From a virus, in the IMG/VR virus record IMGVR_UViG_3300034152_000478, positions 1 to 64,000 of that record: a stretch of DNA of 64,000 nt; one strand, given 5' to 3'. Position 1 is the stretch's first letter. Every line of letters starts with the position of its first letter. Below, in pieces: positions 4,595-15,445 of this stretch. A model generated the notes under the pieces. The model had not been told where the DNA came from. It searched no databases and saw only the letters and a program-made list of their open reading frames with translations. Made by a program: the position numbers and the translations under genes.

Positions 4595-5560
4595 ATGATG
4601 ACCTTCAAAAAATACCCAAGCATCGAAAACAGCTATAGAGACAAATTCGTACAGTATATGCTGGACCAGTATCCGGAGCTGTGCGACGCGGTTTACATCG
4701 TCACTGAAAAAATCGACGGTTCCAACATCCAATTGATCTTTGAACCTTCTAAGCCAGTACAGGTTGCTTCGCGTAATCGGGTATTAACACCTGGCGAAGA
4801 CTTTTTCGGTGTTTGGGATGTGCTACAGGATGTCGAATTGGCCGCGCTGATTAACACTCTGACGCTGTTTGTCGACAAAACCCATCAGACAATCAATCTG
4901 TATGGTGAACTTTTTGGACCTGGAATTCAGAGACGTATTGACTACGGAGACAAGCGTCGTCTGTTGTTTTTCGATGCAGCGATCAATGAAGAGCTGATTC
5001 CACAGGGCGAATTTGTGCAGTTTATGAGCTTGCATGGTTTTCCGAATCTGATGGTTCCTATTGTAACTGTCATCAATACGCTGCAGGCTGCTCTTGACTG
5101 GAGCGTCGAAGATTCTGTTACCAGAGTCAATCCTGATGGTCATAGCGTCCAAGAGAAACGATGTATGGAAGGTGTGGTTATTAAGCCACGCGATAAGGTG
5201 TATCGATCTCATACTGGCAGTACTTTTTACCTCAAGAAGAAAGGTGAGAAGTTCGGCGAAAAAGAGCAGAAGGTCAAAGTGCCGCGTGAGCAGAAGGAAT
5301 ACCGCGAAGAAGTAATCCAGATGTATGAAACGTTTTTTGGCTTGATCAATGAGAATAGGATCAAGAGCGTGTTTTCTAAACATGGTGAAATCGAAGAGCC
5401 TCGTCAAATCGGTGACTACATCAAGCTCGTAATGGCTGATGCCAAAGAGGAGTTTCTCAAAGATTACGAAGATGAGTTGGCACCGTTCAACAAAGATGAG
5501 CTAAAATACGTTTTTAATGTGGGCAACATGATAGTTGGATTGTTAAAGGAGTATCTATGA
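4595..5560 (+). CDS. RNA ligase, T4 Rnl2-like family
   Basis: 321 residues. Nucleotidyltransferase motifs in order: motif I EKIDGSN with adenylated lysine K39, Arg of ASRNR, motif III LYGELFGPG, motif IV EGVVIKP, motif V YLKKKGEKF. The family seals nicks with 3'-OH/5'-phosphate ends in double-stranded RNA using ATP. The C-terminal helical part is typical of Rnl2. In this tRNA-rich region a role in repairing cleaved tRNA is plausible but inferred. The gene after it overlaps by four bases (ATGA). Confidence 0.9.
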   Translation: MMTFKKYPSIENSYRDKFVQYMLDQYPELCDAVYIVTEKIDGSNIQLIFEPSKPVQVASRNRVLTPGEDFFGVWDVLQDVELAALINTLTLFVDKTHQTINLYGELFGPGIQRRIDYGDKRRLLFFDAAINEELIPQGEFVQFMSLHGFPNLMVPIVTVINTLQAALDWSVEDSVTRVNPDGHSVQEKRCMEGVVIKPRDKVYRSHTGSTFYLKKKGEKFGEKEQKVKVPREQKEYREEVIQMYETFFGLINENRIKSVFSKHGEIEEPRQIGDYIKLVMADAKEEFLKDYEDELAPFNKDELKYVFNVGNMIVGLLKEYL

Positions 5561-5808: not shown

Positions 5809-5883
5809 TCGGGCGTGGTGTAAAGGTTCGCACGCGACCCTGATAAGGTTGAAGACGGGGTTCAATTCCCTGCGCCCGGACCA
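5809..5883 (+). tRNA. tRNA-Ile (GAT)
   Basis: Acceptor TCGGGCG/CGCCCGG with a T-G first pair, discriminator A, encoded CCA; anticodon loop CTGATAA; T-arm CGGGG-TTCAATT-CCCTG. Starts directly after the upstream stop codon. Confidence 0.92.
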
Positions 5884-5885
5884 GT

Positions 5886-5962
5886 CGGCGCGTAGTTCAA
5901 TTGGCCAGAGCACCTGCCTTACAAGCAGGAAGTTGGAGGTTCGAGTCCTCCCGTGCCGACCA
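5886..5962 (+). tRNA. tRNA-Val (TAC)
   Basis: Acceptor CGGCGCG/CGTGCCG, discriminator A, encoded CCA; anticodon loop CTTACAA; T-arm GGAGG-TTCGAGT-CCTCC. Two bases separate it from tRNA-Ile. Confidence 0.93.
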
Positions 5963-9833: not shown

Positions 9834-9908
9834 GGGTCCGAAGCTTTAAAAGTGAAGCACGAGGCTTTTAACCTCGGGAACAAGGGGCAGTACCTTGCGG
9901 ACCTACCA
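9834..9908 (+). tRNA. tRNA-Lys (TTT) with aberrant D and T loops
   Basis: All four helices are sound: GGGTCCG/CGGACCT, GCTT/AAGC, CGAGG/CCTCG (loop CTTTTAA), CAAGG/CCTTG; discriminator A and encoded CCA. But the T-loop is GGCAGTA instead of TTCRANY, and the D-loop TAAAAGTG lacks the G18-G19 pair. The usual elbow contacts are therefore missing. Either a non-canonical functional tRNA, a decoy, or one on the way to decay. Confidence 0.8.
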
Positions 9909-12681: not shown

Positions 12682-14265
12682 ATGAACACGAGACTCTTTA
12701 AGAATCAAAGAGGTGCGTTGGCCCCTAAGGCTGACACTGTGAACGACGCTGGTGGAGTCGCCTACAAGCGTACCGACAAGGAAGCCCTGGCGCAGTACGC
12801 GCTGACTGGCACCTTTGGCAATGCGTTTTACGTTACTGCCGAAGTCCAGCTTGATAGGGCTCTGGATCTGGCTGACAAGGTGGATGACGCTTTCGTCGCC
12901 GGTCTGGCTGTCTATGCTCGCCAGTTTGGCTACATGAAGGACATGCCTGCCTTTTTGCTGGCTGTCCTGTGTGCTCGTCAGAGCAAGTATGTCGAGTTCG
13001 TTTTCGAGCGGGTAATCGATAATGCTCGTATGCTGCGTACTTTCGTTCAGATTCTGCGTAGCGGTCTGACTGGAAGAAAGTCTTTCGGTCGGCGTATTAA
13101 GCGACTAATTCGCAACTGGCTTGCTAATAAGTCTGACGACGCGCTTTTCCGTGCGACCGTTGGTCAGAATCCGTCTATGTCTGATATCATCAAGATGGTT
13201 CACCCTAAGGCTGAGGGTCGTTCACGCAATGCTCTCTATGGGTACCTGCTTGACAAGAAGTACGACGGACGCTCTCTACCTAAGTTGGTAAAGGCGTTTG
13301 AGCGCTTCAAGGATACTCCTGGCACGGTTGAGATCCCTGATCTGCCGTTTCGCATGCTGACTCACCTGCCGCTTAAGACTGAGCAGTGGGTGCAGATTGC
13401 AAAGAATATGCCTTGGACTGCCCTTCGTATGAACCTGAATACACTTGCGCGTCATGGTGTTTTCAACGTGGATGGCATGACTGAGTTGATTGCTGGCAAG
13501 TTGCGCGATCCGCAGCTTATCAGACGTGCCAAGGTGTTCCCTTACCAGCTTTTGGCTGCGTATCTGTTTACGCTTGATACTCGGGAGGTTCCGAACGAGA
13601 TTATCGAAGCACTTCAGGATGCGATGGAAATCGCAATTGAGAATGTGCCAGAAATGGATATTCGCGTTGCTGTGTGTCCGGATGTCTCCGGATCGATGGA
13701 CTGGTGCAGCGTGACTGGTAATCGCGGCTCTGCTTCAAGCAAGATCAAGTGTACTCATGTTGCTGGTCTGATTTCGGCTATCTTCATGCGACGTGCGCGT
13801 GACACCATCTTGCTTCCATTCGAGTTTGGCGTCGTGAACATGCGCCTTAACAAGCGTGATAGTGTAATGACTAACGCTCGCAAGATTGCAGATATTGGCG
13901 GAGGCGGAACTAATGTATCTGCTCCTCTCCAGTTGCTGAACAAGCGTAAGGAGAAGGTGGATGCTGTGATTATCGTCTCTGATAACGAGTCTTGGGTTGA
14001 TACTCATGGCTGGTCTGCTCGGCGCGGTACTCGTACCATGTCTGAGTGGGGCACGCTGCGCCAGCGTTGTCCTGAGGCACGCCTGGTGCTTATGGATCTT
14101 GTTGTTGGCGACAATACCCAGGCGCGAAACAAGGCTCAGGAAGTCTACAACGTTGCTGGGTTCTCTGACACGGCGTTGGGTCTTGTGGCCGACTTTGTCG
14201 TAAATGGACCCAACACTCAGCTCGTGGAGGTAATCGAGCAGCATATCCCTGAGCTTGAAGGCTAA
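12682..14265 (+). CDS. rsr: Ro60/Rsr homologue (TROVE domain plus von Willebrand A domain)
   Basis: 527 residues, the usual bacterial Rsr length. The N-terminal two-thirds is the helical-repeat TROVE ring that binds Y RNA and misfolded RNA ends. The C-terminal vWA domain has a full MIDAS: DVSGSM at about 334-339, GGGGTN at about 406 and VSDNES at about 433. In bacteria Rsr with a Y RNA can tether polynucleotide phosphorylase or act in RNA quality control. The nine Y-like RNAs start ten bases after its stop codon, which strongly supports the call. RBS TAGGAGG. No Rtc genes lie beside it, unlike many bacterial loci. Confidence 0.95.
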   Translation: MNTRLFKNQRGALAPKADTVNDAGGVAYKRTDKEALAQYALTGTFGNAFYVTAEVQLDRALDLADKVDDAFVAGLAVYARQFGYMKDMPAFLLAVLCARQSKYVEFVFERVIDNARMLRTFVQILRSGLTGRKSFGRRIKRLIRNWLANKSDDALFRATVGQNPSMSDIIKMVHPKAEGRSRNALYGYLLDKKYDGRSLPKLVKAFERFKDTPGTVEIPDLPFRMLTHLPLKTEQWVQIAKNMPWTALRMNLNTLARHGVFNVDGMTELIAGKLRDPQLIRRAKVFPYQLLAAYLFTLDTREVPNEIIEALQDAMEIAIENVPEMDIRVAVCPDVSGSMDWCSVTGNRGSASSKIKCTHVAGLISAIFMRRARDTILLPFEFGVVNMRLNKRDSVMTNARKIADIGGGGTNVSAPLQLLNKRKEKVDAVIIVSDNESWVDTHGWSARRGTRTMSEWGTLRQRCPEARLVLMDLVVGDNTQARNKAQEVYNVAGFSDTALGLVADFVVNGPNTQLVEVIEQHIPELEG

Positions 14266-14274
14266 ACAAAATAT

Positions 14275-14355
14275 ACCGAGATGCTGGATTGTGTTTACAT
14301 GCATAAGATTAAGGATTTTATCAGCAAAAAACGACACAACCACCCCTTGCTCGGT
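14275..14355 (+). ncRNA. Y RNA-like unit 1
   Basis: Basal stem ACCGAG/CTCGGT, 5' box ATGCTGGATTGTGTTTACATG, 3' box CCTTG, second stem TTGTGT/ACACAA and a short AU-rich head. Followed by a TTTT stretch. No tRNA-like module. Begins ten bases after the Ro60 stop codon. Confidence 0.8.
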
Positions 14356-14373
14356 GTTTTAACTTGACGAACG

Positions 14374-14484
14374 TGCAGGAATGCCGACAAGTGATTACAT
14401 GGATAAAGCATTTTTATGTGAGTTGGTTCAAGCCCGACACGCTGCGGTAGCAGTGAAAAAGTCACTGTCATTTTTTGTCCTGCA
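14374..14484 (+). ncRNA. Y RNA-like unit 2, with T-arm-like hairpin
   Basis: Basal stem TGCAGG/CCTGCA; 5' box ATGCCGACAAGTGATTACATG; the 3' box is TTTTTGTCC, a variant. The head holds a perfect tRNA T-arm mimic GTTGG-TTCAAGC-CCGAC, a D-loop-like GCT-GCGGT-AGC and a hairpin CAGTGA/TCACTG. T before D is the permuted order seen in units 7 and 8, but no acceptor helix is left. Confidence 0.72.
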
Positions 14485-14522
14485 TACTTTATAGGCTGGG
14501 CATCCTTATCTGCCTGCCAGAA

Positions 14523-14584
14523 GTTGGAATGCGCTTGTGTTTACATGTGACATACAAAAGAAACACGAGCACACCTTGTCCAAC
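14523..14584 (+). ncRNA. Y RNA-like unit 3 (minimal, 62 nt)
   Basis: Basal stem GTTGGA/TCCAAC, 5' box ATGCGCTTGTGTTTACATG, 3' box CCTTG, second stem GCT-GTGTTT/AAACAC-AGC with one internal wobble or mismatch. The shortest unit: just the Ro60-binding type stem with a small loop. Preceded at 14494-14518 by a small GGC-T-GG/CC-T-GCC hairpin. Confidence 0.8.
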
Positions 14585-14599
14585 CGACTTTGAAAACAA

Positions 14600-14666
14600 T
14601 CCGGAATGCTGATTGTGAGTACATGACTTGTAATCATTGACCGCTCTCAATCAATCCTTGTCCGGT
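14600..14666 (+). ncRNA. Y RNA-like unit 4
   Basis: Basal stem CCGGA/TCCGG, 5' box ATGCTGATTGTGAGTACATG, 3' box CCTTG, second stem GATTG-GAG/CTC-CAATC interrupted by one T-T mismatch. No tRNA-like module. The box sequences match unit 3 while the stems have changed on both sides. Confidence 0.82.
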
Positions 14667-14683
14667 ACTAATACGATAACGAT

Positions 14684-14752
14684 CCGGGATGCTGGCTGTG
14701 TGTACATGCTATGAAAAAGCTCCTTTATTCCACACTGCTAAAACTTGCCCGG
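14684..14752 (+). ncRNA. Y RNA-like unit 5
   Basis: Basal stem CCGGG/CCCGG, 5' box ATGCTGGCTGTGTGTACATG, 3' box ACTTG, second stem GC-GTGTG/CACAC-GC around a T-T mismatch. No tRNA-like module. The ACTTG-CCCGG end is close to the CACUUGACUAG end of animal Y RNAs. Confidence 0.82.
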
Positions 14753-14769
14753 CTCTAAAATAACAACTC

Positions 14770-14893
14770 ACTGGGATGCTGTTGTGTATACATTCAGAGG
14801 TAGCTTAACAGGTAGAGCAGCGGCGAAAGCCGAAGACGAAGGTTCGAGTCCTTCCCATTGAGCCAAAAACTACTCAACAATTACTTGCCCAGT
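14770..14893 (+). ncRNA. Y RNA-like unit 6 carrying a tRNA mimic without anticodon
   Basis: Basal stem ACTGGG/CCCAGT, 5' box ATGCTGTTGTGTATACAT, 3' box ACTTG, second stem TGTTG-GTA/TAC-CAACA. Inside lies a tRNA-shaped module at 14794-14865: acceptor TCAGAGG/CCATTGA, D-arm GCTT-AACAGGTA-GAGC, T-arm GAAGG-TTCGAGT-CCTTC, G and CCA. The anticodon arm is shortened to CGGC-GAAA-GCCG, a GNRA tetraloop, so it cannot decode. The module is attached through its acceptor end. Confidence 0.88.
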
Positions 14894-14905: not shown

Positions 14906-15042
14906 GGTTTGGAATGCCTGTTGTGATTACATGCTTGTAACGCCGGTAATGTTGGTTCGAATCCAGCCGTCCCCGATTTATGGGGGCGTCGTCTAATGGC
15001 AGGACACCGTTAAAATAGTCACAGCGATCCCTCGTCCGAGCC
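14906..15042 (+). ncRNA. Y RNA-like unit 7 with circularly permuted tRNA module
   Basis: Basal stem GGTTTGGA/TCCGAGCC (8 bp), 5' box ATGCCTGTTGTGATTACATG, 3' box CCTCG, second stem TGTGATTA/TAGTCACA. The tRNA module is permuted: T-arm GTTGG-TTCGAAT-CCAGC and 3' acceptor CGTCCCC come first, a GATTTAT loop closes the acceptor end, then 5' acceptor GGGGGCG and D-arm GTCT-AATGGCA-GGAC follow. The anticodon stem halves (14939-14943 and 15007-15011, 4 of 5 paired) lead into the Y stem. Confidence 0.9.
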
Positions 15043-15060
15043 TTCACCAAAGAATAACAT

Positions 15061-15196
15061 GACGGGATGCTGTTAGGTTTACATGATCAGGAACTGAATG
15101 TCATAGGTTCGAATCCTATCTCCTCGACCACTAACGAGGAGTAGCTCAGTTGGATAGAGCGTCAGTAAAATGCGACTTGACGAACCCTTGCCCGTC
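15061..15196 (+). ncRNA. Y RNA-like unit 8 with circularly permuted tRNA module retaining CCA
   Basis: Basal stem GACGGG/CCCGTC followed by TTTTT, 5' box ATGCTGTTAGGTTTACATG, 3' box CCTTG. Permuted tRNA: anticodon-stem half ACTGA (15093), T-arm ATAGG-TTCGAAT-CCTAT, acceptor CTCCTCG, A, CCA, spacer CTAA, acceptor CGAGGAG (15135), TA, D-arm GCTC-AGTTGGATA-GAGC and anticodon-stem half TCAGT (15162). All helices pair fully and the retained ACCA shows descent from a real tRNA. Confidence 0.92.
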
Positions 15197-15207
15197 TTTT
15201 TAAATTT

Positions 15208-15336
15208 GAGGTATGCAGGCGTGGGTCCACATGGGACCCTGTGCAGTGGACATCTGGCCCGGCATTTTGATTCGCAAGCGCGGAGGGAGCCCAGCCGGGG
15301 AATAACTGCTCCCCAGGGGTCCCGCCTACATATCTC
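15208..15336 (+). ncRNA. Unclassified GC-rich structured RNA inside the array
   Basis: Closed by GAGGTATG/CATATCTC (8 bp) plus AGGC/GCCT and GGG/CCC. Inside: hairpin GGGTCC-acat-GGACCC, CCCGGC/GCCGGG enclosing a CGC-AA-GCG hairpin, and GGGG/CCCC. The 5' strand ATGCAGGCGTGGGTCCACATG loosely resembles the Y 5' box, but the CTTG box is missing. It is clearly more GC-rich than its flanks. It could be a diverged Y RNA or a different ncRNA; no known family recognised. Confidence 0.7.
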
Positions 15337-15351
15337 ATAATAAAAAACTAT

Positions 15352-15445
15352 GCTGGAATGCTGTTTCGGGTTTACATGTGACCATCATAACATCTATGCT
15401 CGGGAGACCGGGCACTGACAACGACTCGGGCATACCTTGTCCAGC
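15352..15445 (+). ncRNA. Y RNA-like unit 9, ending in a terminator-like U-run
   Basis: Basal stem GCTGGA/TCCAGC, 5' box ATGCTGTTTCGGGTTTACATG, 3' box CCTTG. The head has GCTCGG-GAGA-CCGGGC, a GNRA-capped hairpin. Seven T follow directly (15446-15452), so the Y stem of the last unit may double as an intrinsic terminator for the array. Stem plus U-run also mirrors the 3' end of animal Y RNAs. Confidence 0.82.

What the first reader, a model, noticed from the sequence alone, without database searches (positions are those of the whole stretch)
14906..15196. Circularly permuted tRNA modules inside Y RNAs 7 and 8
In both units the order is anticodon-stem half, T-arm, 3' acceptor strand, loop, 5' acceptor strand, D-arm, other anticodon-stem half. 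Acceptor helices CGTCCCC/GGGGGCG and CTCCTCG/CGAGGAG are complete, T-loops are TTCGAAT and D-loops keep GG, so the elbow should form. Unit 8 even keeps ACCA in the joining loop, a fossil of a real tRNA 3' end. The opened anticodon end continues into the Ro60-type stem. tRNA mimicry is established for bacterial YrlA RNAs; two separately derived copies in one phage, with retained CCA, suggest repeated recruitment of tRNA sequences.
Basis: partly seen in the sequence, partly recalled or inferred. Interest (0 to 1): 0.93.

Follow-up and report, generated by a model that had tools for sequence, protein, structure and literature searches.

The report
Phage Y RNAs carrying tRNA-shaped modules
Right after its Ro60 gene this phage makes nine small "Y RNAs", two of which carry a real tRNA body cut open at the anticodon and closed at the other end; that rearrangement is already known from bacterial YrlA RNAs, but a neighbouring unit carries an un-rearranged tRNA, which I found nowhere else.

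Summary
Units 7 (14906-15042) and 8 (15061-15196) are Y RNAs downstream of a phage Ro60 gene. Each holds a tRNA body permuted at the anticodon loop, with complete 7-bp acceptor hairpins, TTCGAAT T-loops and D-loops with GG; ACCA stands at the tRNA 3'-end position in unit 8. It is not chance: a strict search finds this module 69 times on the Ro60 strand of 1.28 Mb, never on the other strand or in shuffles. The architecture is not new. Rfam's YrlA model has the same order, a covariance model built from 42 bacterial Y RNAs finds unit 8 (76 bits, E 3.5e-20) and unit 7 (58.8 bits, E 4.2e-15), and a paper states that the YrlA crystal structure superposes on tRNA with circular permutation. They are new phage members of the YrlA kind. 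The retained CCA is shared: NCCA stands there in 10 of 74 relatives (shuffle mean 1.5), which supports descent from real, probably tandem, tRNA genes. Repeated recruitment is partly supported: units 6, 7 and 8 resemble tRNA-Trp, tRNA-Gln and mixed tRNAs. Outside the given coordinates, unit 6 (14770-14893) carries an unpermuted, acceptor-open tRNA with GCCA and a GAAA-capped anticodon arm, unique here.

The parts
12682..14265 (+). Ro60 (Rsr) gene, 527 aa, TROVE domain plus von Willebrand A domain
   Evidence: Pfam vWA_Ro60 2.6e-16, TROVE 3.3e-08; phmmer to D. radiodurans Rsr 2NVO 4.5e-22
14273..14357 (+). Y RNA unit 1 (no tRNA module)
   Evidence: outer and inner stems, ATGC/CTTG internal loop, TTACAT
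14373..14485 (+). Y RNA unit 2: T-arm-like hairpin and second hairpin only (reduced module)
   Evidence: R1 model 31.3 bits E 5.8e-07; fold z -3.6
14523..14584 (+). Y RNA unit 3 (no tRNA module)
   Evidence: motifs and fold
14601..14665 (+). Y RNA unit 4 (no tRNA module)
   Evidence: motifs and fold
14684..14752 (+). Y RNA unit 5 (no tRNA module)
   Evidence: motifs and stems
14770..14893 (+). Y RNA unit 6: acceptor-open, NOT permuted tRNA module
   Evidence: Y stems; Rfam tRNA 46.5 bits inside it
14794..14865 (+). tRNA body of unit 6: acceptor TCAGAGG/CCATTGA (6 of 7 pairs), GCCA kept (14862-14865), anticodon arm CGGC-GAAA-GCCG
   Evidence: Rfam RF00005; nearest annotated relatives tRNA-Trp; ARAGORN does not call it a tRNA gene
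14906..15042 (+). Y RNA unit 7: YrlA-type, anticodon-open permuted tRNA module
   Evidence: R1 58.8 bits E 4.2e-15; Rfam YrlA 22 bits
14951..14967 (+). unit 7 T-arm
   Evidence: sequence
14968..14988 (+). unit 7 closed acceptor hairpin, loop GATTTAT
   Evidence: 7 of 7 pairs
14991..15005 (+). unit 7 D-arm GTCT/GGAC, tRNA-Gln-like
15061..15196 (+). Y RNA unit 8: YrlA-type, anticodon-open permuted tRNA module
   Evidence: R1 76.0 bits E 3.5e-20; Rfam YrlA 45.3 bits, E 1.4e-08, whole model
15103..15119 (+). unit 8 T-arm
15120..15141 (+). unit 8 closed acceptor hairpin, 7 bp
15127..15130 (+). ACCA at the tRNA 3'-end position inside the joining loop
   Evidence: sequence; positional enrichment in relatives
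15144..15160 (+). unit 8 D-arm GCTC/GAGC with GG
15352..15445 (+). Y RNA unit 9 (no tRNA module), followed by a T-run
   Evidence: motifs and stems; terminator-like tail

Best explanation
Units 7 and 8 are phage members of the YrlA-type Y RNAs. The 5' and 3' ends pair into the Ro60-binding stem (AUGC / CUUG internal loop). That stem runs into the opened anticodon stem of a tRNA body whose acceptor end is closed by a short loop, so T-arm and D-arm can dock into the tRNA elbow. Shown by comparison: the order of parts, the pairings with compensatory changes in relatives, and the tie to a Ro60 gene. Inferred from published Rsr/Y RNA work: the phage Ro60 ring holds the stem, and the tRNA-shaped end is the handle for a host tRNA-binding protein (PNPase in Deinococcus; DusA and TruB modify YrlA), pointing Ro60-bound structured RNAs at host nuclease or repair. 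The held 150.9-kb record has no RNase PH-domain gene, so any PNPase would be the host's. Inferred origin: such a module arises when a Y RNA stem captures the junction of two tandem tRNA genes (3' half, CCA, spacer, 5' half), which explains both the permutation and the CCA in the joining loop. The confidence given is for the identity (YrlA-type Y RNA with a permuted tRNA module); for the tethering function it is about 0.5.
For: Ro60 identity. Nine Y units directly downstream. Rfam YrlA over the whole model for unit 8. A model from 42 bacterial Y RNAs, built without the window, finds units 7 and 8 at scores like other phage members and 267 matches in 80 bacterial Ro60 loci. In those 42, 24 of 31 pairs have changes on both sides; covariation 0.637 against 0.183 shuffled. 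Known enterobacterial rsr-yrlB-yrlA contigs show the same order. YrlA superposes on tRNA with circular permutation (PMC11472068). CCA position. Tandem tRNA junctions of the same phage (His/Gln 10986-11050, Ile/Val 5856-5912) match the module part of the model. Function of relatives: PMC8394870, PMC7790460.
Against: No expression, Ro60-binding or PNPase-binding data for this phage. Rfam's curated cut-off (69 bits) is not reached. Single-sequence folding slightly prefers other pairings. The effector protein is unknown, and the tandem-capture origin is inference.
Confidence: 0.85

Rival explanations
1. The tRNA bodies are decoys: tRNA shapes without an anticodon loop that occupy host anticodon nucleases or tRNA-modifying enzymes during infection, protecting phage and host tRNAs.
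For: PMC7790460 reports that YrlA is not cut by the RecA-dependent nuclease and suggests it may compete for it. The phage has many tRNA genes and a T4 Rnl2-like RNA ligase. Three units with different tRNA ancestry would widen the decoy range.
Against: Decoys would not need the Ro60 stem, which is the best kept part of all nine units; six units carry no full tRNA body.
Confidence: 0.25
2. Units 7 and 8 are permuted tRNA genes that are processed into working tRNAs, as in some algae and archaea.
For: Order of halves and the CCA in the joining loop resemble permuted tRNA genes (class described in PMC3978253, listed).
Against: No anticodon loop: the stem strands lead straight into the Ro60 stem. 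ARAGORN finds no tRNA here. The joining loops are only 7-8 nt. The Y stems are conserved across the array.
Confidence: 0.02
3. Two broken ordinary tRNA genes lying side by side by chance.
For: Tandem tRNA genes do give the same order of halves.
Against: Acceptor strands of the two halves pair 7 of 7 in both units; Y stems flank them; 0 such modules on the minus strand or in shuffles; a bacterial Y RNA model finds them at E 4.2e-15 and 3.5e-20.
Confidence: 0.01
4. The tRNA likeness is older shared descent within YrlA, kept by selection for the elbow, with no new recruitment of tRNA genes in this phage lineage.
For: Unit 8 has the common YrlA D-arm (TAGCTC, 96 of 107 modules). Another phage contig, L015, has the Gln-like D-arm of unit 7.
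Against: Units 7 and 8 are closer to real tRNAs than to other Y modules (26 vs 24.5; 29 vs 27), while only 7.5% of the surveyed modules are (median -9); unit 7 keeps tRNA-Gln variable-loop and anticodon-stem remnants; unit 6 is Trp-like and in another topology. The comparison is biased because the phage has no close relatives in the sample.
Confidence: 0.4

Closest known systems
YrlA (Rfam RF02553; Salmonella YrlA structure 6CU1)
   Same: Same order: Ro60 stem, anticodon-stem half, T-arm, closed acceptor hairpin, D-arm, anticodon-stem half, Ro60 stem; beside a Ro60/Rsr gene; unit 8 matches the full model
   Different: Score below Rfam's curated cut-off; 7-bp acceptor with 7-8-nt joining loop (ACCA in unit 8) instead of the short loop of enterobacterial YrlA; sits in a nine-unit phage array
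YrlB (Rfam RF02565) and other Y RNAs without a tRNA module
   Same: Ro60 stem with GAAUGC, UUACAU and CUUG-type motifs, like units 1, 3, 4, 5, 9
   Different: No tRNA body; these units have no Rfam match
Phage Ro60/Rsr loci (mycobacteriophages, Myxococcus phage Mx1, Listeria phage CKA15)
   Same: Ro60-like gene in a phage; Y RNAs reported for mycobacteriophages and proposed for CKA15 (PMC12282133)
   Different: No close relative of this phage was found; Ro60 is 45% identical to that of Mx1, the nearest whole match in the phage records
Circularly permuted tRNA genes of algae and archaea
   Same: 3' half before 5' half, joined through the acceptor end
   Different: Those are processed to working tRNAs; here there is no anticodon loop and the open end is the Ro60 stem

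Membership tests
YrlA-type Y RNA | Encoded next to a Ro60/Rsr gene | tested here: met
   Ro60 gene ends at 14265, array starts at 14273
YrlA-type Y RNA | Ro60-binding stem with AUGC / CUUG internal loop formed by the RNA ends | tested here: met
YrlA-type Y RNA | T-arm, closed acceptor hairpin, D-arm in that order | tested here: met
YrlA-type Y RNA | Score above Rfam RF02553 gathering cut-off (69 bits) | tested here: not met
   45.3 bits (unit 8) and 22.1 bits (unit 7). This is a database threshold, not a structural feature; a wider bacterial model gives 76.0 and 58.8 bits. So: members of the YrlA kind, not of the Rfam family as curated
YrlA-type Y RNA | Binds Ro60 and an effector such as PNPase; modified by TruB/DusA | not testable with these tools
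   Needs biochemistry; reported for relatives (PMC8394870)
Working or permuted tRNA gene | Anticodon loop of 7 nt that can be restored | tested here: not met
   No anticodon loop in units 6, 7, 8; ARAGORN negative
YrlA-type Y RNA (unit 6) | Permuted at the anticodon loop | tested here: not met
   Unit 6 is acceptor-open and in normal tRNA order
Y RNA in the wide sense (unit 6) | Ro60-type stem and internal loop | tested here: met
   Outer helix 6 bp, inner helix, ATGC and CTTG

The most novel reading that the evidence does not exclude
Y RNAs recurrently capture tRNA bodies, and the Ro60 stem can be grafted onto different points of the tRNA (anticodon loop, D-loop, or acceptor end as in unit 6), with the unused ends capped by tetraloops or short loops; phages do this with different tRNA isotypes side by side. 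What is selected would be the tRNA elbow, not the topology.
Probability: 0.4. Interest if true: 0.65.

Novelty: new member of a known kind. Interest (0 to 1): 0.42.

Why it matters
Permuted tRNA modules are the known hallmark of YrlA, so units 7 and 8 by themselves extend a known family to another phage. The use lies in the set: one phage array with tRNA bodies attached in two topologies, a family-wide trace of CCA at the old tRNA 3' end, and bacterial Y RNAs opened in the D-loop. That makes it testable whether any tRNA elbow on a Ro60 stem is enough, and where Y RNA modules come from.

Tried and rejected
Looking for parents among the phage's own tRNAs: no phage tRNA is a clear parent (crude gap-permitting alignment). 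Ro60 single-sequence search of viral contigs found nothing; the alignment search did. Short hits OR845705/OR851267 filed as phages carry rsr-yrlB-yrlA next to rtcB-like sequence and look like enterobacterial host DNA; used only as YrlA references. An apparent acceptor-open unit in L096 and tRNA-like hits in L071, L084, L086 and L116 are D-loop-open Y RNAs on inspection. Looked for RtcB, RNase PH-domain proteins and tmRNA in the phage record: no RtcB or RNase PH, tmRNA below cut-off. Thermodynamic z-scores were weak and are not used as support. Exact-pattern searches for near copies of units 7 and 8 in viral contigs gave one tRNA gene (tRNA-Tyr by ARAGORN) and nothing. Chen 2014, Wang 2018 and Sim and Wolin 2018 are not in the library, so I could not check whether D-loop-open or acceptor-open Y RNAs were described there. 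No structure prediction was run; the tool folds proteins, not RNA.

Full report
What was checked. The window is part of a 150,882-base virus record. A 527-aa Ro60 protein (12682-14265) has TROVE and Ro60 vWA domains and matches the solved D. radiodurans Rsr. Just after its stop codon begins an array of nine units, each with a 5' ATGC...TACAT-type motif, a 3' CTTG-type motif, an outer and an inner helix (the automatic finder merged units 3 and 4, which I separated by eye).

The observation. A strict search for T-arm + fully paired 7-bp acceptor hairpin + 2 nt + D-arm with GG gave 69 hits on the Ro60 strand in 1.28 Mb, none on the opposite strand and none in ten shuffled copies; in the bacterial loci every hit lay in the Y RNA neighbourhood of Ro60, and in the window only units 7 and 8 matched. 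Single-sequence folding is neutral: the tRNA-like fold is 2.3 (unit 7) and 4.6 kcal/mol (unit 8) above the MFE, and z-scores are about -1.5. The case for the fold is therefore comparative.

What it is. Rfam's YrlA model, itself in the permuted order, matches unit 8 over its full length (45.3 bits, E 1.4e-08) and unit 7 weakly (22.1 bits), both under the 69-bit cut-off. I collected 39 viral and 80 bacterial Ro60 loci, aligned 42 bacterial Y RNAs of this shape and built a model without the window. It finds unit 8 at 76.0 bits (E 3.5e-20) and unit 7 at 58.8 bits (E 4.2e-15); other phage members with a full module score about 54-93; bacterial loci gave 267 matches. The alignment shows strong covariation, including all seven acceptor pairs and four of five T-stem pairs. 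Its members were picked for having a 4-bp D-stem and a well-paired acceptor, so the degree of pairing, though not the compensatory changes, is in part built in. Enterobacterial yrlA copies show the same order with a short joining loop. That YrlA aligns to tRNA by circular permutation is published (PMC11472068). So the permutation is the family's normal state.

The CCA. Among 74 joining loops of the surveyed permuted modules, ten have CCA at the exact place of a tRNA 3' end, against a mean of 1.5 and a maximum of 7 in 5000 shuffles. The sequences are partly related, so this is strong but not independent evidence. Tandem tRNA genes in this phage (His/Gln, Ile/Val) match the module part of the model, as expected if such modules began as captured tRNA-tRNA junctions. 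This origin is inference.

Parental tRNAs. Put back into tRNA order for search only, unit 7 matches tRNA-Gln genes among annotated phage records and its top three among 277 local tRNAs are all tRNA-Gln. Unit 8 matches several isotypes. Unit 6 matches tRNA-Trp. Both permuted units are slightly closer to real tRNAs than to other Y modules, unlike 92.5% of modules surveyed; lack of close relatives of this phage biases that comparison. D-arms other than TAGCTC are commoner in the phage modules I could read than in bacterial ones; this was seen after looking at the data and not tested on a fresh set.

Unit 6 and other topologies. Unit 6 (14770-14893) holds a tRNA body in normal order, opened at the acceptor end, with GCCA kept and the anticodon arm cut to CGGC-GAAA-GCCG. 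Of 446 tRNA-like places scanned in all loci, it is the only true one inside a Y stem (the other Y-stem hits are D-loop-open forms or spurious). Its tRNA-like fold is 3.9 kcal/mol above the MFE, so here too the evidence is sequence, not energy. A further form exists in bacteria: fifteen Y RNAs with a closed anticodon arm, closed acceptor and a D-stem that joins GAGC just after TACA-GGTA to GCTC near the 3' end, with covariation overall, though the D-stem itself has only one compensatory row. I could not check whether these forms are in the papers on bacterial Y RNAs that the library lacks.

How it most likely works. In relatives Rsr holds the Y RNA stem, and the tRNA-like end meets PNPase; DusA and TruB modify it (PMC8394870). 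The same division of labour is the best guess here, with host PNPase or another tRNA-binding protein as partner, since the record has no RNase PH-domain gene. A decoy role against anticodon nucleases, proposed for YrlA in PMC7790460, is the main functional rival.

Verdict. Observation confirmed; interpretation partly supported; new member of a known kind (YrlA), with unit 6 as a variant next door.

Noticed in passing
window 15218-15331: A structured RNA between Y units 8 and 9 that is not a Y RNA and has no Rfam match. Its core (GTGGGTCnnC...CCCTGTGCAGnnGACATCTG...GCGCGGAG...GGAATAAC...CAGGGG) recurs in about a dozen other phage contigs (L132, L133, L139, L149-L153, L155-L158, L160) with visible covariation in GTCnnC/GnnGAC and nnnCCCTG/CAGGGGnnn; several copies carry a CTGATGAG...CGAAAC hammerhead-like arm that Rfam does not score, and some contigs hold it near tRNA genes. 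Possibly an undescribed phage RNA family.
   Followed up: partly
L055:5642-5776, L057:5725-5851, L074:3818-3943, L084:5930-6055, L087:5982-6110, L093:5815-5944, L108:5671-5801: Bacterial Y RNAs whose tRNA module is opened in the D-loop instead of the anticodon loop, with anticodon arm and acceptor closed; some (L064:5817-5947, L101:5944-6086, L119:6155-6295, L121:6066-6207) look tRNA-Leu-like with a long variable arm.
   Followed up: partly
window 4595-5560: T4 Rnl2-like RNA ligase in the tRNA-rich region of the same phage.
   Followed up: no
window 9834-9908: A tRNA that ARAGORN misses and Rfam scores at 38.7 bits; its T-loop is not of the TTCRA type and its D-loop lacks GG, so it may not form a normal elbow.
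   Followed up: no
L077:5904-5977 and L077:6138-6214: tRNA genes lying between Y RNA units in a bacterial array, a setting in which Y stems could capture tRNA sequence.
   Followed up: no
OR845705.1 and OR851267.1 (L003, L004): Short records filed as Escherichia and Salmonella phages that carry rsr-yrlB-yrlA and then rtcB-like sequence, apparently host DNA.
   Followed up: partly
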